From Saprospiraceae bacterium (lineage in GTDB: Bacteria > Bacteroidota > Bacteroidia > Chitinophagales > Saprospiraceae), in NCBI GenBank assembly GCA_019694295.1, contig JAIBCG010000003.1:1-64000 (forward strand): a DNA stretch of 64,000 bases. The letters run 5' to 3'. Under the pieces are notes generated by a model. That model did not search any database. It was not told the origin of the DNA and worked only from the letters and a program-made list of their open reading frames with translations. The position numbers and the translations under genes were made by a program. This document shows, piece after piece, positions 7,128-59,291 of the stretch (position 1 is the first letter of the stretch; the number at the start of each line of letters is the position of its first letter).

Positions 7128-10100
7128 TTAATAGACAACGGTTACGAGGCCTTTTAGTGTTTTTTCAGTATTGCTTACTTCGCTTTTGTAAACTGCAACG
7201 TAAGTATATATACCCAACGGTACGCGTTTGTTGTTCTTGAATCCGTCCCAGACATCGTCCATGCTGTTACCCACGAATAGTTGTTCGCCCCACCTGTTAA
7301 ATATCTTCCACTCTATAGATTTTATACCAAGACCGGCAAACTTGAAGTAATCATTGAGGTTGTCACCATCGGGGGTGAATGCATTGGGGGCATAAATAGT
7401 TTCTTCGTTAATGACACAGAGTTTCAGAGAATCTTCAGAGAAACACCCACCTTCATTTTCGATATGGAGTTTTATTGTAAAGTCACCTTCATTCGCGTAA
7501 AGATGAATAAGGTTGCCATCTTGTGGGTTATAATTGATATTACTTCCATCGCCAAAATCCCAGTATCCTGATACTCCACCTACACTGTGGTCAAGGACAT
7601 TGATGCTTGCATCGAGTGATGAAAAACAGTCTTTTGTTGGTGGGATGGTAAAATTGGCCTGAATCAAAGGATAACCTTTCAAGTCAATACTTTCTTCCTG
7701 GCTACAGCCGGTATTATTATTGACCACCTGTACAAGATATGTTGAAGGAGGGCCCGTGTATGTATCACCTATGAATACAGGATTTGTAAGCCAGTTAAAA
7801 GTGTAGTCGGCTACCGGATTCCCGGACAATTTGGTAAATGTTGTATCGCCAAAGCACACTTCAGGGCCATACACCTTATCAACGACAAAATCCGGATGTA
7901 CATATACCAACACATCAGCTGTTGCGGGATCTGAACAGCCATCATCAACGGTGACAGTATAGGTGGTTGTTTTTTCGGGAAAGACGAACTGAGTTTGGCC
8001 GAATCCTACACCATTATTCCAAAAGTAATTAAAATTCCCAAATGAGCTGCCTCCGAGTCCTAGCGCCGATATTTTCGAACTCTCCCCGCGACAGATAGAA
8101 TCTGAGGCAAAAGCCAGCTGTACGGTAACAGGATCACCTACATTTACAACGATTGATTTTGAGTCTGCACATTTTCCACTACCATAATTGTAGCTTATAC
8201 TGTGGACGCCAGGGCCTGCAATGGCCGGATTAAACGTGGTCTGCGGCTTACCATCAACTAATAATTTGCCACCTGGAGGGGTTACATTGATGGTAATAGT
8301 GGTGTCCATAAAACAATACGACGAGGCAATACCTGTAAGTGCCACTTTTTGGAATGGTACTACATCGATGATGCCGGTATTGACACAACCAGTAGTGGCG
8401 GTCATAGTAATGATATGTTGTCCTGTACCTGCTGTTTTGGGGTCAAATATGCCACCAAAGGCATTGATGATACCATTGCCTACCCAAGTTGAAACCGGAA
8501 CCGAAGCGTTGAGTTTGATCGGTGTTTCTTCGGCACAAAGCGATATTGAATCCAATACCGGCAGTGGATTTATGTTAAAGAACATTGTGTCTGTACAGCC
8601 GTTATTGGAATATACAATGGTGTTGAGTCCGGTGACAGCTTGTTTTGGGTCAAAATAATACCCGTTTTTAGGGTCTTTATCTTTTATATACACATAATAT
8701 ACACCCGGACCCGACCACGAGCCACCGTTAGGTTTTGCCTGAAAGTCATCATTTAGTATTTTGTAAACGTCATCATAAGGGCAGAAAGAAATTACAGATT
8801 TGTTGTTGATCACGGTATTGCGTATGTAGGCAATACGGTTATCTGAACAGCCATTGACAGTATAAGTCAAGGTAATATTCTGGCCATCTTTAAGTAGTGA
8901 TGGATCGAACAAGCCACTGAGTGTGTCTATAATGCCAGGCCCTGACCACACGCCACCTACAGGTCCCCAGCTACCCGGTACAATAAAGGGTCCATTGTTG
9001 GTACAAGCGACAAAATCATATTTTGCATCAACCGGGACAATATAGATACTCATCGAGTCTTGACACCCATTGATATGATAATGCAATTTGTTTTCACCCG
9101 GCAAGGCATTTGCTGGTGAAAACCAGCCCCAGTTAGCATTAAGACCGGGTGAAGCATCCCAGTATCCGCCCCACGGGCTGACAGGTATTGAAAAATCGCT
9201 TAAGGAGCTACAAATGGTAATATCAGCGGGCATTACGAGGTTTGCAACGTTCACTTTTTTAGATTGGCTACAACCGTTAGGAGCAGTATAGGTGATAAAA
9301 TAAGTCCCCAGCGCAGAAGGATCAAAAGTACCATTTGGTAAAATATTCTGACCCGACCATGTACCCCCTACTGGTGAGCCACCACTTACAATAAATGGTG
9401 CAGCACCTGGGCAAGAAGCGTCGTCATGATTTATCCATATAGGTTTTACTGTTATATTTACGGTATCCTTACAGCCATTCTTATCGGTATAAATAATCTG
9501 GTCTGAACCCTGCCAGATACGCCATGGCTCATAAAGTCCGGGTGTTTTTTTCTTGTCATCTATGCCGTTGCACTCCCATGTACCACCTCCTGGTGTAGCC
9601 CCAAGGTTGATGCTAGGTTCGGACTGACAAATTGTAAGATCAAGCGGCCAGTTGATAACCGGAGGAGTATGGAGTTCGAATGTAAATGTAGCTACTGCCG
9701 GTTTTGACCCTATACCGTCAGTCACTGTCACGGAATAAGTCAATGGCGGAACACAAACATCAACTGCAGATGTATTTGGAAAAGTCGGGTCACTCCATTT
9801 AATATTATAGGTGGATGGGTCACCACCAGATACGTTGGCATATAGTTTTAAGCATTCACCCGGGCATACCTTGGTCTTATTACCTTCGGGTACAAGCTCT
9901 ACGTACAATGGGCACCCGCTTACATTGAAATTTGCAGTTGCCGTCAGTATATGTGGCTTGTTACAGACATCAAGGAAAGTAGTGGTAAAATTGACAGTAT
10001 AATTGCCGTTCACTTTGATTTCCGGACTGAAACTAAGTAAAATTTCATCGGTTTTGCCATTTACACAACTTACCGGAGTAGCAGAAACAATATCAGGACT

Positions 10101-10661
10101 CTGTGGACCGTAAAGCAAGAATGCGCCCGGATAAATACTGTCGCAGCTTACGGGCTGGCTGAGTTTTAATTTAAAGGAACTTGATTCACATGGTACTGTA
10201 CCTGTTACCATCATCTGAGGTGGTAAGGGGTCATCTATTTCCACCTTCCAGCTACCGAGCCAGCCCAGACACTGGATGTTGGCATCAGAGATGAAATTAA
10301 TGGTAAGACAACCACTGGTGGCAGTAATGGCAGGTGGTAGTACTGTGCCTGAAAACGGGCCCCCGATCATAGGTGAAAGCGTATCGGGGCCGTCAAAAAA
10401 TCTGAGATAATCCAATTTTTCTTCCGTACAGAATTTAGCAAAGGTGAAAATTATTTTTTCTCCGCCGGGTACACATATTTTAAATGTATAATTTTCATTA
10501 TTATCATACGTATCGGGCAACATTCCATTGTCACTATCCATGAGTATGCCTTCGCACTCATTGGTAGTTGCATTTGACATATTGAAACTTGGTTGAGCCA
10601 CTACAACCGTTATTGAAATGAATGCCAAAAAATAAGTGAAGACCAGTCGGATTCCTGTCAT
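7128..10661 (-). CDS. Giant CUB / repeat / PKD surface protein with type IX (type B) sorting domain
   Basis: An 1177-residue exported protein. A signal peptide (to about residue 22) is followed by a CUB domain at roughly residues 30-145. Then come Ig-like segments and a run of repeats built on a pattern like GGxWSGxGI...FDP...YTxxGC (about residues 350-770). A PKD-type domain (WDFGDGS, about 1035) precedes the C-terminal CHU_C/gliding-motility sorting domain at residues 1091-1177 (NAFTPDGDN, IFNRWGE, PLGIYTY). Type B CTDs of this sort direct export through the type IX system to the cell surface. It is the last gene of the lipoprotein/DUF1501 cluster, 7 bases after the preceding gene. The many paired cysteines, GC at repeat ends, may form disulfides. 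Confidence 0.9.
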   Translation of the reverse strand: MTGIRLVFTYFLAFISITVVVAQPSFNMSNATTNECEGILMDSDNGMLPDTYDNNENYTFKICVPGGEKIIFTFAKFCTEEKLDYLRFFDGPDTLSPMIGGPFSGTVLPPAITATSGCLTINFISDANIQCLGWLGSWKVEIDDPLPPQMMVTGTVPCESSSFKLKLSQPVSCDSIYPGAFLLYGPQSPDIVSATPVSCVNGKTDEILLSFSPEIKVNGNYTVNFTTTFLDVCNKPHILTATANFNVSGCPLYVELVPEGNKTKVCPGECLKLYANVSGGDPSTYNIKWSDPTFPNTSAVDVCVPPLTYSVTVTDGIGSKPAVATFTFELHTPPVINWPLDLTICQSEPSINLGATPGGGTWECNGIDDKKKTPGLYEPWRIWQGSDQIIYTDKNGCKDTVNITVKPIWINHDDASCPGAAPFIVSGGSPVGGTWSGQNILPNGTFDPSALGTYFITYTAPNGCSQSKKVNVANLVMPADITICSSLSDFSIPVSPWGGYWDASPGLNANWGWFSPANALPGENKLHYHINGCQDSMSIYIVPVDAKYDFVACTNNGPFIVPGSWGPVGGVWSGPGIIDTLSGLFDPSLLKDGQNITLTYTVNGCSDNRIAYIRNTVINNKSVISFCPYDDVYKILNDDFQAKPNGGSWSGPGVYYVYIKDKDPKNGYYFDPKQAVTGLNTIVYSNNGCTDTMFFNINPLPVLDSISLCAEETPIKLNASVPVSTWVGNGIINAFGGIFDPKTAGTGQHIITMTATTGCVNTGIIDVVPFQKVALTGIASSYCFMDTTITINVTPPGGKLLVDGKPQTTFNPAIAGPGVHSISYNYGSGKCADSKSIVVNVGDPVTVQLAFASDSICRGESSKISALGLGGSSFGNFNYFWNNGVGFGQTQFVFPEKTTTYTVTVDDGCSDPATADVLVYVHPDFVVDKVYGPEVCFGDTTFTKLSGNPVADYTFNWLTNPVFIGDTYTGPPSTYLVQVVNNNTGCSQEESIDLKGYPLIQANFTIPPTKDCFSSLDASINVLDHSVGGVSGYWDFGDGSNINYNPQDGNLIHLYANEGDFTIKLHIENEGGCFSEDSLKLCVINEETIYAPNAFTPDGDNLNDYFKFAGLGIKSIEWKIFNRWGEQLFVGNSMDDVWDGFKNNKRVPLGIYTYVAVYKSEVSNTEKTLKGLVTVVY

Positions 10662-10667
10662 AGCTTA

Positions 10668-11111
10668 TTATTTATTTATAGTAATCTCTTTTGTACGGAT
10701 AACGTTGCTTTTTCGTCCTGCACGATCTATCATCCAGAGCTCGAAGTAGGTTTTTTCTGAAGCGCTGTTACCAAGTACAAATGCTCCATTAAGTGTGATA
10801 TTGAGTGTGCCTCTGATACTTATCTGTGAACCTATCGGTGCCAATGGTGCAACATAATATTCATCTGCTTTGTCAAGCCGGTTATCCTTTATGAATAAAG
10901 AGTTGATGTCGGTATCAATGTTGCCAAGATCGCCATCTCCGTCTTCATATTCTATCAAGAGCTCAAGTGGATCCTGAAATTCTTTAATAGTGTCTGATGA
11001 TATTTTTAACAAGCGAATAGACGGTGTAGTGGACAGTGGCAACAAATTGTCATCTTTCTGACATGAAAGCATCATTGAGAGAATGAATAAAACCAGGACT
11101 ATTCTTATCAT
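10668..11111 (-). CDS. Small lipoprotein of the DUF1501-like cluster
   Basis: A 147-residue predicted lipoprotein: signal peptide with lipobox MLSC, then CQKDD. The rest is predicted beta-rich. An acidic stretch, YEDGDGDLGNIDTD, resembles a calcium-binding loop, and similar DGDGDLG segments are common in Bacteroidota surface lipoproteins. Its ATG overlaps the stop of the upstream lipoprotein gene by 4 bases, so the two are translationally coupled. I do not recognise a specific function. Confidence 0.75.
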   Translation of the reverse strand: MIRIVLVLFILSMMLSCQKDDNLLPLSTTPSIRLLKISSDTIKEFQDPLELLIEYEDGDGDLGNIDTDINSLFIKDNRLDKADEYYVAPLAPIGSQISIRGTLNITLNGAFVLGNSASEKTYFELWMIDRAGRKSNVIRTKEITINK

Positions 11112-12049
11112 CCTATGATTATTTTAAATGAAAAATAATTTTTAATATAATAAACGCCATCATTGGTTGGTATTTCGGTTTCAATACCATCAGAATCTGT
11201 AACATAAACCCTGAAAAAAATGGTTTCTCCGGTTTTTGCATAATTCTGTGGATTGAGTGAATATTTGTGGTAATAGTGTACATTATTGCCATAATAACCT
11301 GTAAAATCAACAGGCGTACTCAAAACTTCTAGTGGAAAAGATGTAGCATTGGCGAAATCGTCCTGACTTTTAGAAAATTTAATCCTTGCATTCGTTAGTT
11401 GATCAGAAGGTGTTTTGTCATCTGAGAATGCAAAATATAAGTCGAGTGAGGTTTCGGTTTCTTTTACTCTTAATGCGCCTTGCCCACTGTCAGCACGGTC
11501 GAGCCAGGTACCGGTTTTGCCAAGTACGCCCTGCATTTGTGGCACTTTGTTGGTCAGACTTGGTAAGTTGCCGAAAATATCTTTTGCACCACCGTCTATC
11601 CATGCCTTGATATTGGCTATGTATTCATCTTTCTTTGAATTCCAGTCAGAACCCGGGTCAACTACCAATGGCATAATACCCGACTGTCCGTCAATATCAG
11701 CGGTTAACCTCTTATAAAGGACAGATTCGGCGCTGCTTCCGGGTTTTACTCTGTATGTGAATGAATTTTGAGGATCATTTTTTATGATCGGGTGATACAC
11801 AAGTGTGTTGTATGTACTTGAAATGGTTCTGAAGTCAGGTTCAAAGGTGCCGTCATGGCATCCTGAATTGGCACATGTAGGTTTGAAAATATATGCGTGC
11901 AGACCGGCAAAGGATTTTGGGTCGGGTTTGTACAACGCAACAGTATCCTGGTTGTTAGGTTGGAAATCTTTATACGGATTTGGTGCTTCTTTTTCACATC
12001 CGGCCCACATCACACCAAACAACACGATTAACGAAAAAATTCTGGTCAT
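11108..12049 (-). CDS. Lipoprotein with CX4CH cytochrome-like motif (PSCyt1-like)
   Basis: A 313-residue lipoprotein. I use the ATG at 12049 because it gives a clean signal peptide with lipobox WAGC (Cys18); the longer frame starts at a TTG. Residues 59-65 read CANSGCH, a CX4CH arrangement rather than the usual CX2CH, followed by DGTFEPDFRT. A later SGIMPL segment could supply a methionine ligand, and IKAWIDGGAKD resembles the end of planctomycete-type PSCyt1 domains. The C-terminal half is beta-rich and unassigned. Haem binding is an inference. It lies 10 bases after the DUF1501-like gene and overlaps the next lipoprotein by 4 bases. Confidence 0.7.
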   Translation of the reverse strand: MTRIFSLIVLFGVMWAGCEKEAPNPYKDFQPNNQDTVALYKPDPKSFAGLHAYIFKPTCANSGCHDGTFEPDFRTISSTYNTLVYHPIIKNDPQNSFTYRVKPGSSAESVLYKRLTADIDGQSGIMPLVVDPGSDWNSKKDEYIANIKAWIDGGAKDIFGNLPSLTNKVPQMQGVLGKTGTWLDRADSGQGALRVKETETSLDLYFAFSDDKTPSDQLTNARIKFSKSQDDFANATSFPLEVLSTPVDFTGYYGNNVHYYHKYSLNPQNYAKTGETIFFRVYVTDSDGIETEIPTNDGVYYIKNYFSFKIIIG

Positions 12050-12059
12050 ATCGGCATTA

Positions 12060-13403
12060 TTAAATTTGGTCAAAAAATGATTTTGCTACCGGATCTATCA
12101 GACCTTGGCTGAGTACATCGTTTTTGAAGCCCAGCAATTCTGCTATTGTTGGTATTATATCAGAACTGTCACCTACCGGATTGCCCTCGCTACCTATGGT
12201 GAGGTTTGATGGAATACCCGGCCCTACCATCATGCTGAATATTCTTCTTGAATTCTGGTCGCTGTGGTCGTAGGCAAACCAGTCATTCTCATCCGTTATC
12301 GGATTGTGGTCTAGGTTGCGCCCACATTCAGGTATGATAAGCATTGCAGTTTTTCCGGACATTTCAGGTATCTGGGTTTGTATTACGTCCCAGAGGTGTC
12401 CTACACCATGATCTGCCCGGTGTAATGCACCCAAGTAAGTTGTAAAGTTGCCATGGCATACGTCAACATCATTCAGGTTAATAACTGTTAGCTTAGGTTT
12501 GAAATATTTTAGCACCTCAGTAGCAAAGCCTATGGTGATGTTGTCACCATTATCAGTTACCGGAGGGAATGCAATCTGTTGTTTATCAAGTCGGTCAAAT
12601 GTTTTTCTGATAAAATCTTTGATGCTTTCTCTTTCTTCTTCGGTATTGCCGAGTGTTTCGAGGTGGCTGCCTTGTAGCCTGAAACTCTGGTTCAGGAAAG
12701 TCTGCATTTTATGTATCGGGTCGAGTTCATCATCAGGATGATAGATTTTGAATCCCTTGATATATTTTTCAGCACCAAACGTAACGATGGGAGCAATGAA
12801 GTTAGCGCCGTATCTTTCTCCAAAGCCTTCATAGTTGGAGTGGTTGAGTAAAGGAATAGAGCCGGAAATACCATTACCTACGAACCAGGTGTCTGTTGCT
12901 TTAAGCCCGCCAAACCTTCTGGCATATTCGAAGATGGTGGGGTGCAGTGGTCTTTGTTTTAGACCCTGTGTCACGCTGTAATTTCCGGATACAGCTGTAG
13001 CGAGTCCATTGTAATGACCGGTACTACCTTTTGAGAATCTGAGTTCTTTGAACAGAGTACCTTGTTTTTGGAGTGAAGTAGGCAATACTTTTGATATTGG
13101 TTGGCCACCTTTTTGGCCACCCGGCAATGTAGTGCCATAGGCTACCTTAAGTGTCGGAGCATCACCTTCAAGCATATTGTACATAATGTTGCCTTCGATG
13201 TTAAGTTTTTGGCTGTCCGAAAGGTAGCGTTGTTGTACAGATTCTTGTTGGCGTACACCTCCGGCAAATAATACGAGTACGACGTGTTCGGCCAATGGCG
13301 GATTGGTTGTAGCAAATAGACGGCCACTAGGTAAAATATAGGGCGCAGCTAAAACACCGCCCGTAGCCAATGCCATTTTCTTTATAAAACTCCTTCTTTT
13401 CAT
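12060..13403 (-). CDS. Tat-exported DUF1501/sulfatase-like protein
   Basis: A 447-residue protein with a twin-arginine signal (RRSFIKK at residues 3-9, then a hydrophobic stretch ending APYILPSGRLFA). The body resembles DUF1501/sulfatase-like members of the alkaline phosphatase superfamily. Visible support: the segment VINLNDVDVCHGNFTTYL, the PECGRN motif (compare EFGR in DUF1501) with a downstream YDHSDQN, and the C-terminal DIIPTIAELLG typical of sulfatase-like folds. No sulfatase Cys/Ser modification motif (C/S-x-P-x-R) is evident. Folded export through Tat suggests a bound metal. Enzymatic activity is unknown. Confidence 0.75.
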   Translation of the reverse strand: MKRRSFIKKMALATGGVLAAPYILPSGRLFATTNPPLAEHVVLVLFAGGVRQQESVQQRYLSDSQKLNIEGNIMYNMLEGDAPTLKVAYGTTLPGGQKGGQPISKVLPTSLQKQGTLFKELRFSKGSTGHYNGLATAVSGNYSVTQGLKQRPLHPTIFEYARRFGGLKATDTWFVGNGISGSIPLLNHSNYEGFGERYGANFIAPIVTFGAEKYIKGFKIYHPDDELDPIHKMQTFLNQSFRLQGSHLETLGNTEEERESIKDFIRKTFDRLDKQQIAFPPVTDNGDNITIGFATEVLKYFKPKLTVINLNDVDVCHGNFTTYLGALHRADHGVGHLWDVIQTQIPEMSGKTAMLIIPECGRNLDHNPITDENDWFAYDHSDQNSRRIFSMMVGPGIPSNLTIGSEGNPVGDSSDIIPTIAELLGFKNDVLSQGLIDPVAKSFFDQI

Positions 13404-13425
13404 CTATTAAGGCTGCTATTAATTT

Positions 13426-13908
13426 TTAATAATAATCATATTCTGCCGATGTGGCAAATGCAAAGTATATGTGTTCGGGTGTTATGTTCGGGTGCGATTT
13501 GATAAAATTCAGAAAAAAAGCTTTTTCTGCTTGTGTGGGTTCTCTTACGAAAAATCTTTTATAAGTATTAATGATAAATTTCTCGGGGTCAGCTTTCATT
13601 TCGCTCAACGGTGGCAATTTGATGTCAGGATCATTCATCATTTTGCTTATGATTATTTCGTGTGCCACCTGTTTGTCACCTATTGATTGAATCACATTAG
13701 AAAGGTCCACCAGTTTGTCAGGTGACAGTGCTTTTTGGTAAAGGTTGGCATATACGATGTTCAGATACTGTTCGTTGGTTTTTTCTTTATTCTTGTCGGC
13801 ATTGTTAGGGAGTATATCTACCTTATTTACCTCGTAAATGTATTTATCATCTTTGCAGCCGACCAATACAAACAGTACAATGATGAAGAATATGTTGAAT
13901 GTTTTCAT
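13426..13908 (-). CDS. Lipoprotein with one C-terminal REP-type module
   Basis: A 160-residue lipoprotein. The ATG at 13908 is chosen over one 30 bases upstream because it gives a lipoprotein signal with lipobox LVGC and avoids overlap with the preceding gene. The C-terminal 46 residues (FFVREPTQAE ... TSAEYDYY) match the module seen twice in the neighbouring lipoprotein. That module resembles the (L/F)xGRxPxxxE ... SxEY pattern of DUF1549/DUF1553 and DUF4214 proteins. The gene lies 10 bases downstream of that paralogue and 22 bases upstream of the DUF1501-like gene. Function is unknown. Confidence 0.7.
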   Translation of the reverse strand: MKTFNIFFIIVLFVLVGCKDDKYIYEVNKVDILPNNADKNKEKTNEQYLNIVYANLYQKALSPDKLVDLSNVIQSIGDKQVAHEIIISKMMNDPDIKLPPLSEMKADPEKFIINTYKRFFVREPTQAEKAFFLNFIKSHPNITPEHIYFAFATSAEYDYY

Positions 13909-13918
13909 TGGTAATACT

Positions 13919-14830
13919 TTAAAAGTTAGCATATTCATCGGTTATCATTATTTTTTCCTGAATCTTTCGAATGTCACGGTTGAGGATGTATTCGCCGAGT
14001 ATTTCACTTGTTTCCTGCGACTTTGGTTCTCTTGACAATAAGGTACGGTAACACCAAATGATCATACCTTCAAAAAATTCGTTGGTATCACAGATGGCAT
14101 CTACGTATTCCTTTTTGTTAGTGCATAATTTGTTGAAGAATAGATTGGGTTTGTTGTATTCTACGATATCAAAACCTACCAGAAATTCAGTCGATGTAGG
14201 GAAACGCCATAGCAAATCTTCAAATGTTGAGTTGACAAAATTGAAGGTGTTCATGTGGATAAAATCATAGATAGAGTTATTGACCATACGACTAAAAAAC
14301 ACATCGTAAGGTATCTGACCATCAAAAAACTGCACTTTTGTATCCAAAATAGACTGAAGATTATTTTTTTCGAGCAAACCCTTGTTGTATGATTCCCAGT
14401 CACCGAGTAGAGAATCTTCCTTCATACCAAAGACTATGTTGCCAATGCGCATATTGATATCTTCGTCAGAAGCGCCTTCTATGGTGCGTACTTTTGCCAG
14501 ATTATACATATATTGCGAATAAGCCTTACGGTACGAGCCATCACCAAATACAGAATCGGTACTGTTCTGAAGCTTTTGGATGATTTGTCTTCGGGCATTG
14601 ACAGAAAGGTTATTGCTGCGAAGCAGATTGACATTTTCGTCCATTTCTACATCAAGTGGTTCGCGGCCAACCAGATCAATAAACATCCTGTTGACGTAGT
14701 TCTGCATCTTGATGGTAGATATTTTGGTATAGTCAGGTGGGTTGTTGCCACCGATTATCTCCGGGTCTTTGTTACATCCAGTGAGCACAACGACTACCAA
14801 TGTAAAGAGGGTAATGAATAATTTATTCAT
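13919..14830 (-). CDS. Lipoprotein with two REP-type (DUF1549-like) modules
   Basis: A 303-residue lipoprotein (lipobox LTGC, Cys19). An N-terminal module around residues 45-85 reads YVNRMFIDLVGREPLDVE and then ARRQIIQKL, much like the start of planctomycete DUF1549. A C-terminal module at residues 260-303 (YRTLLSREPKSQE ... TDEYANF) is like the tail of DUF1553. The middle has no recognisable domain. It is the first gene of the six-gene minus-strand cluster that ends with the CHU_C protein. Membership of the DUF1549/DUF1553 group is inferred from motif likeness only. Confidence 0.68.
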   Translation of the reverse strand: MNKLFITLFTLVVVVLTGCNKDPEIIGGNNPPDYTKISTIKMQNYVNRMFIDLVGREPLDVEMDENVNLLRSNNLSVNARRQIIQKLQNSTDSVFGDGSYRKAYSQYMYNLAKVRTIEGASDEDINMRIGNIVFGMKEDSLLGDWESYNKGLLEKNNLQSILDTKVQFFDGQIPYDVFFSRMVNNSIYDFIHMNTFNFVNSTFEDLLWRFPTSTEFLVGFDIVEYNKPNLFFNKLCTNKKEYVDAICDTNEFFEGMIIWCYRTLLSREPKSQETSEILGEYILNRDIRKIQEKIMITDEYANF

Positions 14831-55742: not shown

Positions 55743-56012
55743 GCAGCTTCATAATAGGTGATAATTAACTAATATTCTTGGATCTTGTTTTTTATTCATT
55801 CAAGTTAAGTATTTAACTCACATTATAGCTTTATCAAGGTTATAATTTCCTGATTTAATCTTACTTTCGCATTGAAATAAAAAGTACGAACCTTTTCCGG
55901 TTTAAATGATTATATAGCATGAAATAGTTCGGATAAAATTTTGCGCCATGCTGCTACAACCGGACATTTTGATATAGCAAAAATTACAACAATCCAGACC
56001 AATAAAATACTA
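55743..56012. other. Spacer before ResB-CcsA gene
   Basis: A 270-base AT-rich spacer. The frame of the next gene extends back to a TTG at 55941 with no similarity to the family, so that part is left as leader. No clear hairpin is seen. Confidence 0.5.
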
Positions 56013-59000
56013 ATGAACCCATTGAGTAAAATGTTATTTTCAACACGTACCATGACCGTACTTTTGCTATTATACGGTATATCGATGGCTGTGGCAACAT
56101 TCGTTGAGAATGACTTTGATACACCTACTGCCAAAACATTAATATACAATGCATCATGGTTCGAATTACTGATGCTTTGGCTTGTGGTTTTGTTTATCCG
56201 AAATATTTCTGTCTATAGACTTACACGACGTGAAAAATGGCCGGTTTTGGCATTTCACTTGGCGTTTGTATTTATGTTTATTGGCGGTGCAGTTACACGC
56301 TATATAAGTTTTGAAGGCCAGATGCCTATTAAGGAAGGTCAGACCACCAACGAAATCATCAGCGACCTTACTTATTTTAAGCTACATGTGAGTGATGGCG
56401 AAAAAGCTATGATTTATGATAAATATCCTTACCAGATGTCTTATTTCAATGGAAAAATTACGAGTTGGCCATTCAAAAGATCATTCTCTCAGGATTTTAT
56501 TTTTGACAAAAAAACCATAACACTTAAAGTGCTTGATTACATTCCGCTGGCAAAAGATTCTGTAGTACTAACGGAGTCCGGCAAAAGAATGATAAAACTG
56601 GTATCGATGGGAGAGCAAGGAAGGGTAAATAACTATATTGCCGAAGGCGAAATAAAAAGCATTAATGGCACATTGGTAGGCTTCAATGATACTACAGAAG
56701 GTATAGTCCGACTGGTAGAAAAGAATGGTGATATAGAATTAACACTTCCTACTGATGGAGAGTACATGTCTATGCAGGGTCAAATGATGGGAATGATTAC
56801 TGATACTACTAAGTTTTCACAAAATTCAGGTACACTATTGGCCAATCAAGCTTCTATGGTTAATCATCGTGCACTTTATACAGTAGGTAACGGCAGTTTT
56901 ATTATACCTGAAAAACCATTCAATGGTGTCATGAAATATTTCAAGGGAGATAAGAATAACCCCTCTGAGAAGAATCTTCCGGGGCTCATCGAAGTAGAGC
57001 TTAGTTCGGGAAAGGACAGGGATACAGTAAACCTAAAAGGCGGACAAGGAATACTAACGCTTAATAATCCGGTAAAGTTAAATGGGCTGGATGTGTCAGT
57101 TGGGTTTGGGTCGAAAATGCTGCACACATCATTCTTTTTACGTTGCGACGACTTTAAACTCGATCATTATCCCGGCTCAAATAACCCTTCGTCGTATGAA
57201 AGCAAAATAACTGTGATAGACGGAGAAAAAGAGAAGCAGCATAGGATATATATGAACAACGTGATGGATTACCGAGGTTACAGATTTTTTCAGGCCAGTT
57301 ATTTCCCTGATCAGTCCGGTACTATATTATCAGTTAATGCAGACCGTATGGGTACCAATATTACCTATTTCGGATACTTTTTATTGTTTGCGGGTATGTT
57401 TTTCAGTTTATTCTGGAAAGATACCCATTTTTGGAAGCTAAATGAAAGTCTGAAGCAGATGCATACCATGAAAAGTGTTTTAGTTATAGTTGCTATGTGT
57501 GTATCCTCAATTGGTTATGGACAAAATGGAGTGCATGATTCAACGCATGTCCATCAAATGTCGGAACATGAGGCAAACCCGACAGCTCAGTTTGCCCGGC
57601 CGGATGAACTTGGGCCGGATAAAAGAATAAATCCGATACATGCTGAAAAGTTTGCACATCTTCTGGTTCAGGATTTCCAGGGAAGGATCAAACCAATGAA
57701 CACACACACATTGGAGCTTTTGCGTAAGCTATACAAAAAAGACCATTATAAGAATGCAGGGCTGTCGCTCAGTTCCGAACAATGGTTTATTTCTATGCAG
57801 GTAGATCCTGCTTTTTGGGCTACAGAACCAATTATCAAAGTAGGTTCGAAAGGTGGAGATGCTCTGTTGAAAGAAACAAAAGCAAATGATGAAGGCTATA
57901 CATCTTATGCCAATCTGCTCGACCCTGAGACAGGAGCATTTATACTTGAAGATAAAGTGAATGCATCCTTCAGTAAGAGGAAAGCTGACCAGACGAATTA
58001 TGATAAAGAAGTCATAGATGTTACAGAACGCTTCAATATATTCAGCAATGTGGCTTATGGCTATTATACAAAAGTTGTACCTGTTAAGGATGATCTGAAT
58101 AACACTTGGCATAGTTGGATCTATAGCTCAGACCATAATTCGGTAGAGATAGATGACACAGCTTATGTTGTACTTACCAATTATTTCAACTCCGTTAAAG
58201 ATGGATTAAAAACTGGCAAGTGGGAAAAAGCAAATGAGAACATCGATATCATGAGCAAACTTCAGAAGACTTGGGGCGCTAAGGTGGTTCCGGCAGATGC
58301 CAAAGTAAATCTTGAAATACTCTACAATCACGCCAATGCGTTCTTCTGGCTGATGATAGTGTATAGCATGCTGGGAATGTGTCTTGTTTTATTGGGCTTT
58401 GCAGAAGTGTTGTCAACCGGCACTACTTATAATAAACTTATACGCGTTCTTACAAAAGTATTGCTCGGATTTTTGGTAGCAGCTTTATTAGTACAAGCTG
58501 TGACACTGGGTATAAGGTGGTATTTGTCTGGTCATGCACCTTGGAGTAACGGATATGAAGCAATTGTATTTATCTCGGGCATCGGGGTGTTGGCAGGGTT
58601 AATCTTGTACAAAAACCGCAACGCATTCATTCCTGCAGCAGGCGCACTAGTTGCTATGATCATGATGGGTTTCGCACACGGTGGCTCCATGCTCGATCCG
58701 CAAATAACACCGCTCGAACCCGTGCTTAAATCGTACTGGCTGATGGTTCACGTGGGTATTATTACTTCAAGTTACGGCTTTTTTGGTTTGTCGGCTGTAT
58801 TGAGTGTGATTTCGCTGATTCTTTATTGTGTAAAGCCCACAGATAAAATCCAGCATTCGATAAAGGAGATGACCATCGTAAACGAGATGTCGCTCACCAT
58901 TGGTATATTTGCTTTGACAATTGGTACATTCCTGGGTGGCATGTGGGCTAATGAAAGTTGGGGACGATACTGGAGCTGGGACCCCAAAGAGACCTGGGCA

Positions 59001-59291
59001 TTCATTTCAGTAATATTTTATGCTGTTGTATTGCACTTAAGGCTTGTGCCGAAGCTACGAGGAACCCTTACATTCAATATAGCCAGTTTGTGGGCAATAT
59101 GGTCGGTAATATTCACCTATTTTGGGGTCAATTATTATTTGTCCGGGCTTCATTCCTATGCAGCTGGTGATCCGATGCCTGTACCTGCCTGGATTTACAT
59201 TTCAGCTACAGCAATGTTGGTGTTGACACTGTCCGCATACCTGAGGAAGAAGTTGACAGATAAAGCACAAAACTTTGGTCAGTCTGCCTGA
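56013..59291 (+). CDS. ccsBA: ResB-CcsA fusion, cytochrome c haem-attachment protein
   Basis: A 1092-residue fusion of ResB and CcsA, the system II machinery that carries haem across the membrane and attaches it to apocytochrome c. I use the ATG at 56013; the frame runs back to a TTG. ResB helices lie at about residues 12-35, 50-70 and 80-105 and at 455-475. An internal stretch near residues 486-507 (MKSVLVIVAMCVSSIGYGQ) looks like a signal peptide and begins a periplasmic domain. Then CcsA helices follow from about 775. The haem-binding WWD-type motif is WGRYWSWDPKETW near residue 990. It would mature CcoO and CcoP here. Confidence 0.93.
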   Translation: MNPLSKMLFSTRTMTVLLLLYGISMAVATFVENDFDTPTAKTLIYNASWFELLMLWLVVLFIRNISVYRLTRREKWPVLAFHLAFVFMFIGGAVTRYISFEGQMPIKEGQTTNEIISDLTYFKLHVSDGEKAMIYDKYPYQMSYFNGKITSWPFKRSFSQDFIFDKKTITLKVLDYIPLAKDSVVLTESGKRMIKLVSMGEQGRVNNYIAEGEIKSINGTLVGFNDTTEGIVRLVEKNGDIELTLPTDGEYMSMQGQMMGMITDTTKFSQNSGTLLANQASMVNHRALYTVGNGSFIIPEKPFNGVMKYFKGDKNNPSEKNLPGLIEVELSSGKDRDTVNLKGGQGILTLNNPVKLNGLDVSVGFGSKMLHTSFFLRCDDFKLDHYPGSNNPSSYESKITVIDGEKEKQHRIYMNNVMDYRGYRFFQASYFPDQSGTILSVNADRMGTNITYFGYFLLFAGMFFSLFWKDTHFWKLNESLKQMHTMKSVLVIVAMCVSSIGYGQNGVHDSTHVHQMSEHEANPTAQFARPDELGPDKRINPIHAEKFAHLLVQDFQGRIKPMNTHTLELLRKLYKKDHYKNAGLSLSSEQWFISMQVDPAFWATEPIIKVGSKGGDALLKETKANDEGYTSYANLLDPETGAFILEDKVNASFSKRKADQTNYDKEVIDVTERFNIFSNVAYGYYTKVVPVKDDLNNTWHSWIYSSDHNSVEIDDTAYVVLTNYFNSVKDGLKTGKWEKANENIDIMSKLQKTWGAKVVPADAKVNLEILYNHANAFFWLMIVYSMLGMCLVLLGFAEVLSTGTTYNKLIRVLTKVLLGFLVAALLVQAVTLGIRWYLSGHAPWSNGYEAIVFISGIGVLAGLILYKNRNAFIPAAGALVAMIMMGFAHGGSMLDPQITPLEPVLKSYWLMVHVGIITSSYGFFGLSAVLSVISLILYCVKPTDKIQHSIKEMTIVNEMSLTIGIFALTIGTFLGGMWANESWGRYWSWDPKETWAFISVIFYAVVLHLRLVPKLRGTLTFNIASLWAIWSVIFTYFGVNYYLSGLHSYAAGDPMPVPAWIYISATAMLVLTLSAYLRKKLTDKAQNFGQSA

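What the first reader, a model, noticed from the sequence alone, without database searches (positions are those of the whole stretch)
7128..14830. Six-gene export cluster resembling planctomycete PSCyt/DUF1549/DUF1501 sets
Seen: tight minus-strand spacing (10, 22, 10, -4 and 6 bases) of two REP-module lipoproteins, a Tat-exported DUF1501/sulfatase-like protein, a CX4CH lipoprotein, a small lipoprotein and a CUB/CHU_C surface protein. Known: planctomycete genomes carry PSCyt1-DUF1549-DUF1553 genes beside DUF1501 genes. Inference: this is a Bacteroidota surface system with a similar core, with the giant type IX protein as its exposed part. I know no function for it.
Basis: partly seen in the sequence, partly recalled or inferred. 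Interest (0 to 1): 0.68.

Follow-up and report, generated by a model that had tools for sequence, protein, structure and literature searches.

The report
Conserved six-gene heme-and-hydrolase surface operon
Six neighbouring genes form an unnamed operon that stays intact across hundreds of largely uncultured Bacteroidota; it looks like a taken-apart version of the still unexplained planctomycete cytochrome/DUF1501 gene sets, with an added protein shown on the cell surface.

Summary
Six minus-strand genes (A-F, 7128-14830) have exactly the stated spacing and form a conserved operon. In named genomes 295 stretches encode a relative of C; in 48 of 49 long loci A-E are all present, always in the order A-B-C-D-E-F and on one strand, from Saprospiraceae to Flavobacteriales. 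Flanking genes are not conserved.

The planctomycete analogy is real but remote. No protein reaches the Pfam cut-off for DUF1549, DUF1553, DUF1501 or PSCyt1. Profile-profile comparison does link D to PSCyt1 (97%), C to DUF1501 (94%), and A and B more weakly to DUF1549/DUF1553, all above shuffled controls. C folds as an alkaline-phosphatase/sulfatase-type protein with invariant site residues. D carries an invariant CX4CH plus Met, a c-heme signature. A and B hold REP/DUF4214 modules. F is a CUB...CHU_C type IX cargo. The lipoproteins bear surface-export-like signals.

Best reading: a split, lipoprotein-anchored DUF1501 system with a one-heme partner and a surface-exposed sixth subunit, most likely acting on a glycoconjugate. 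The architecture is well supported; the substrate is inferred. New variant of a known, functionally open kind.

The parts
13919..14830 (-). gene A, 303-aa lipoprotein; all-helical, REP/DUF4214-like; N-terminal stretch resembles DUF1549 (PSCyt2)
   Evidence: DUF4214 in 20/29 members, PSCyt2 in 7/29, best E 0.0019; pLDDT 92.7
13426..13908 (-). gene B, 160-aa lipoprotein with a DUF4214 module (ORF open from 13938; ATG at 13908 matches homologues and the stated spacing)
   Evidence: (DUF4214 25.5 bits, cut-off 23.2)
12060..13403 (-). gene C, 447 aa, Tat-exported, alkaline-phosphatase-superfamily protein, divergent DUF1501 relative
   Evidence: (353 PDB matches at E<=0.001)
11108..12049 (-). gene D, 313-aa lipoprotein; N-terminal half is a PSCyt1-like c-type cytochrome domain with invariant CX4CH and Met-Pro; C-terminal half dispensable in some genomes
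   Evidence: hhalign 97%, E 1.2e-10; FoxE cytochrome; 77/77 CX4CH
10668..11111 (-). gene E, 147-aa lipoprotein of no known family, conserved DGDGDLG motif; mature N terminus CQKDDN resembles the lipoprotein export signal
7128..10661 (-). gene F, 1177-aa CUB / Ig-like / PKD / CHU_C type IX (type B) cargo
   Evidence: CUB and CHU_C also in four orthologues

Best explanation
The six genes encode one cell-envelope assembly, a split version of the PSCyt1-DUF1549-DUF1553 + DUF1501 kind. Shown: strict co-inheritance and gene order; C has the alkaline-phosphatase-superfamily fold (predicted) with an invariant site; D has an invariant heme-c signature; A and B are helical REP/DUF4214 lipoproteins; F carries the sorting domain of a type B cargo of the type IX system. 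Inferred: A and B scaffold C and D in one complex; A, B, D and E sit on the outer membrane, probably facing outwards; F, held by a PorP/SprF-type barrel, is the long exposed binder (CUB and Ig-like domains); C is a metal-dependent ester hydrolase or transferase (sulfate or phosphate) acting on a surface or extracellular glycoconjugate; D carries electrons for, or senses the redox state of, that reaction. Rough confidence: one functional unit 0.95; shared origin of the core with PSCyt/DUF1501 sets 0.75; C catalytic 0.65; glycoconjugate as target 0.3.
For: Order ABCDEF in 65 of 80 loci, others mostly cut by contig ends; A-E in 48 and F in 47 of 49 long loci. No flanking family occurs in more than 9 of 48 loci, and that one is PorP/SprF directly after F on the same strand, which fits the published anchoring of type B cargo by PorP-like proteins (PMC9143113). 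D-PSCyt1 hhalign 97%, score 88.7 against at most 22.4 in 40 column shuffles; C-DUF1501 94%, 64.0 against at most 25.2; A-DUF1549 40.3 against at most 18.7; B-DUF1553 37.9 against at most 19.4. C fold: sulfatases and alkaline phosphatases. H130, D287, D314, H317, H328, H332, E359, G361, R362, D379, H380 identical in all 74 aligned type-1 C proteins. CX4CH in 77/77 D, Met-Pro in 73/75, WI..GA in 74/75. The genome has TatC, SprA and Cytochrom_C_asm, one copy in this window. Lys at +3 of the mature lipoproteins in 52-88% against 15% of 27 background lipoproteins, near the K-(D/E)2 signal of PMC5080379. All 12 canonical PSCyt2 genes in three Bacteroidota genomes searched for both families lie within about 3.5 kb of a DUF1501 gene.
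Against: A and B links to DUF1549/DUF1553 rest on 35-50 columns at 37-43% probability (15% for A with the larger alignment) and may reflect only a shared REP-type helix motif. C lacks the first-strand Asp of DUF1800-linked DUF1501 proteins (GGND becomes GGVR), so its chemistry could differ or be lost. C has no lipobox or type IX tail and should be periplasmic, which sits awkwardly with outward-facing lipoproteins. Heme attachment to CX4CH is unproven. One genus has lost the arrangement (C alone, half D elsewhere). No substrate evidence.
Confidence: 0.5

Rival explanations
1. A redox module: D passes electrons across or along the outer membrane (extracellular electron exchange or oxidation of an external substrate), A and B are its scaffold, and C is an accessory maturation or structural subunit.
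For: Invariant CX4CH and Met in D and the c-heme assembly gene in the genome; D profile weakly matches FoxE, an iron-oxidising cytochrome (E 0.017); PSC domains were proposed to act in redox reactions (PMC2754498).
Against: Only one heme per set and no multiheme partner or porin-cytochrome gene in the operon; C is the most conserved member and looks like an enzyme.
Confidence: 0.22
2. A maker or modifier of the cell's own surface polymer: C transfers or trims phosphate or sulfate groups on an exopolysaccharide in the periplasm, like the DUF1800-DUF1501 pairs that travel with bacterial chitin synthases.
For: DUF1501-DUF1800 pairs co-transfer with chitin synthase (PMC5122149); A's C-terminal 75 columns align weakly with DUF1800 (score 37.5, shuffles at most 18.4); periplasmic location suits a Tat-exported soluble C.
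Against: No flanking gene family of any kind is conserved next to the operon beyond 9 of 48 loci, so no glycosyltransferase or polymer-export partner either.
Confidence: 0.25
3. The six genes are merely neighbouring, unrelated surface-protein genes.
For: Several members are generic-looking lipoproteins with no strong family match.
Against: Fixed order and strand over several orders with unrelated flanks, tight or overlapping spacing, and a paralogous A'-E' cluster with the same order in most copies.
Confidence: 0.02

Closest known systems
PSCyt1-DUF1549(PSCyt2)-DUF1553(PSD1) protein with adjacent DUF1501 gene (planctomycete sets; also in Bacteroidota, e.g. G080, G223)
   Same: PSCyt1-like heme domain, helical partner with LxGxxP/RxPxxxE motifs, Tat-exported DUF1501-type protein next door; function unknown in both
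   Different: Here the modules are separate lipoproteins, the heme motif is CX4CH not CXXCH, no protein passes the Pfam cut-offs, and E and F are added
DUF1800-DUF1501 pair (two copies elsewhere in this genome)
   Same: Helical partner plus Tat-exported DUF1501
   Different: No heme protein; C lacks the GGND start of that DUF1501 type; A resembles DUF1800 over about 75 columns only
Alkaline-phosphatase superfamily (sulfatases, phosphatases, phosphodiesterases)
   Same: Predicted fold of C; D-x2-H, E-x-G-R and D-H motifs invariant
   Different: Exact metal ligands and nucleophile not assigned; no family-level sequence match
REP modules: phycobilisome linker / DUF4214
   Same: Motif and probable fold of A and B
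   Different: Lipoproteins of a non-photosynthetic bacterium
Type B (CHU_C) type IX cargo with PorP/SprF partner, such as SprB-SprF
   Same: CHU_C tail on F; PorP/SprF directly downstream in 9 of 48 loci
   Different: F belongs to a fixed operon with the five other genes

Membership tests
PSCyt1 (PF07635) | Pfam match over cut-off | tested here: not met
   29 D members scanned, PF07635 not among the families matched
PSCyt1 (PF07635) | Profile-level homology over the heme domain with C..CH, Met-Pro and WI..GA | tested here: met
   hhalign 97%, E 1.2e-10, shuffles at most 22.4 against 88.7; motifs counted
PSCyt1 (PF07635) | CXXCH heme motif | tested here: not met
   CX4CH in 77 of 77
DUF1549 / DUF1553 (PF07583, PF07587) | Pfam match over cut-off | tested here: not met
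   A: best E 0.0019 and 0.023; B: 0.057; PF07583 absent from this genome
DUF1549 / DUF1553 (PF07583, PF07587) | Profile-level similarity | tested here: inconclusive
   37% and 43%, short, but about twice the best of 40 shuffles
DUF1501 (PF07394) | Pfam match over cut-off | tested here: not met
   one member at E 0.16; C not found by the PF07394 search of the own genome
DUF1501 (PF07394) | Tat signal, GG strand end, D..H, E-x-GR, DH motifs and profile-level homology | tested here: met
   hhalign 94% over 142 columns; global alignment; invariance
Alkaline-phosphatase superfamily | Fold | tested here: met
   predicted model, pTM 0.85; 353 PDB matches at E<=0.001, top ones sulfatases and phosphatases
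Alkaline-phosphatase superfamily | Metal-dependent hydrolase or transferase activity | not testable with these tools
   needs purified protein
c-type cytochrome | Covalent heme | not testable with these tools
   motif and maturation gene present
Type IX type B cargo | CHU_C / TIGR04131 tail and a type IX system in the genome | tested here: met

The most novel reading that the evidence does not exclude
A widespread, so far unnamed Bacteroidota envelope machine in which a Tat-exported sulfatase-fold enzyme, a CX4CH one-heme cytochrome and REP-scaffold lipoproteins work with a dedicated type IX cargo as one redox-coupled, surface-acting complex; DUF1549/DUF1553, DUF1800 and A/B would be one REP-derived partner family of DUF1501 enzymes.
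Probability: 0.3. Interest if true: 0.82.

Novelty: new variant of a known kind. Interest (0 to 1): 0.62.

Why it matters
PSCyt/PSD/DUF1501 sets are numerous in planctomycetes and Verrucomicrobia (41 copies of each PSD1/PSC2 domain in R. baltica per PMC2754498), yet papers state that nothing is known about their function (PMC5615132). Here the same kind of parts are separate genes in fixed order, with a clear surface component. That makes it possible to delete, tag and assay each part alone, which the fused planctomycete proteins do not allow.

Tried and rejected
Direct Pfam and NCBIfam scans of C, D and E gave nothing over threshold. The first DUF1501 alignment mixed in DUF1800 reading frames and was redone. 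A seventh conserved gene was looked for on both sides and not found, apart from PorP/SprF in 9 of 48 loci. The aminotransferase inside two type-2 clusters is not general. F that seemed short in marine lineages is in fact 1357-1360 aa with an inserted domain. Promoter and terminator scans were uninformative. Chance adjacency rejected. A paper on DUF1501 clusters in the PVC group (Kamneva 2012) is not held. The library holds only open-licence papers, so an earlier description of this operon elsewhere cannot be excluded.

Full report
1. The observation. One search shows six minus-strand ORFs at 7128-14830. With the ATG at 13908 for B and 12049 for D the intergenic distances are 10, 22, 10, -4 and 6, as reported. 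I call them A (303 aa), B (160), C (447), D (313), E (147) and F (1177) in order of transcription. Neighbours look like ordinary housekeeping genes: upstream, by my own reading of the translations, a YqeY-like and an rsmA-like gene.

2. Is it a unit? A search of 150 genomes of the same family found C in two forms: type 1 (55-82% identical) and type 2 (42-48%). Around type 1 the other five genes follow in fixed order; around type 2 there is a paralogous A'-E' set without F, with D' moved in one case and an aminotransferase inserted in two. A scan of 84,980 named species genomes gave 295 stretches encoding a relative; the best 80 come from Saprospiraceae, Chitinophagales, Sphingobacteriales and Flavobacteriales records, nearly all uncultured. 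Of 49 loci of at least 15 kb, 48 hold A, B, D and E and 47 hold F; 65 of 80 loci read exactly ABCDEF. No flanking gene family is shared by more than 9 of 48 loci; those 9 are PorP/SprF directly after F. Within the class, 78 of 295 genomes carry C of either type, but only 3 of 395 in a phylum-wide sample matched (own, one strong, one partial). C alone occurs in one genus (G015, G122) and in L170.

3. What each part is. C: no Pfam family over the cut-off for type 1 or 2. AlphaFold2 with 74 sequences gave pTM 0.85, and Foldseek placed it in the alkaline-phosphatase superfamily (353 PDB matches at E<=0.001). Profile-profile comparison with Bacteroidota DUF1501 proteins: 94%, E 1.2e-7, aligning E-x-GR and DH; a global alignment with PSCyt-linked DUF1501 runs from the Tat signal to the C terminus. 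The site residues are identical in 74 of 74 type-1 proteins, which argues for a working site. D: hhalign to PSCyt1 97%, E 1.2e-10; CX4CH in 77 of 77, Met-Pro in 73 of 75; its C-terminal half is missing in several genomes, so the heme domain is the core. A: all-helical, pLDDT 92.7; nearest solved structures are phycobilisome linker REP domains, with weak E-values; 20 of 29 members match DUF4214, 7 match PSCyt2 weakly. B: DUF4214 in 28 of 30. A and B are related to each other. E: no known family. F: CUB at the N terminus, CHU_C at the C terminus in all five checked.

4. Controls. For A, B, C and D the observed profile scores (40.3, 37.9, 64.0, 88.7) exceed the best of 40 column-shuffled targets (18.7, 19.4, 25.2, 22.4) and the reversed targets. 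E, a negative control, scored 23.0 against PSCyt, which I take as the noise level from shared lipoprotein signals; A and B lie above it but not hugely.

5. Machinery in the genome. TatC, SprA and cytochrome c assembly are all present, so export of C, export of F and heme attachment to D are possible. Mature A, B, D and E have Lys at +3 followed by acidic residues far more often than 27 background lipoproteins of the same loci; E of the window starts CQKDDN. The published minimal surface signal is K-(D/E)2 (PMC5080379). The background sample is small.

6. Mechanism. I commit to a surface or outer-membrane complex in which A and B hold C and D, and F reaches outwards. C most likely cleaves or transfers an ester group on a glycoconjugate; D supplies redox coupling. 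The location of C is the weak point: it has no anchor and should stay in the periplasm. The substrate is inference from the fold and from the company DUF1501 genes keep elsewhere: sulfatases and carbohydrate-binding modules near PSCyt genes in Verrucomicrobia (PMC5615132), chitin synthase near DUF1800-DUF1501 (PMC5122149).

7. Known or new. Canonical PSCyt2 genes in three Bacteroidota genomes searched for both families are paired with DUF1501 in 12 of 12 cases (read), so the classical system exists in the phylum beside this one; this genome has no PSCyt2 but has two DUF1800-DUF1501 pairs. The present operon fails the curated thresholds of all these families and is best called a new variant of the DUF1501 kind.

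Noticed in passing
L064:5352-8604 and L065:5524-8347 (own genome, contigs 42 and 12): Two DUF1800-DUF1501 tandem pairs elsewhere in the same genome, one DUF1501 with a type IX sorting tail.
   Followed up: partly
window 55941-59291: 1116-aa ORF containing a cytochrome c assembly domain (CcsBA-like).
   Followed up: partly
L053:3886-4998 and L058:9232-10332: Class-V aminotransferase gene lying between C' and D' of two type-2 clusters.
   Followed up: partly
L141, L144 (C alone) and L233, L234 (half-length D alone): In one genus the cluster is dispersed: C and a half D survive in separate places.
   Followed up: partly
L155, L159, L160, L183, L188, L205, L206 (F genes, starting near 10730 in L155): F of a marine lineage is 1357-1360 aa, with an extra domain of unknown kind inserted in the middle.
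   Followed up: partly
L066, L067, L068: A third group of about 360-aa proteins resembling the C-terminal half of C, in other genomic contexts; likely source of the Sulfatase/Phosphodiest matches.
   Followed up: no
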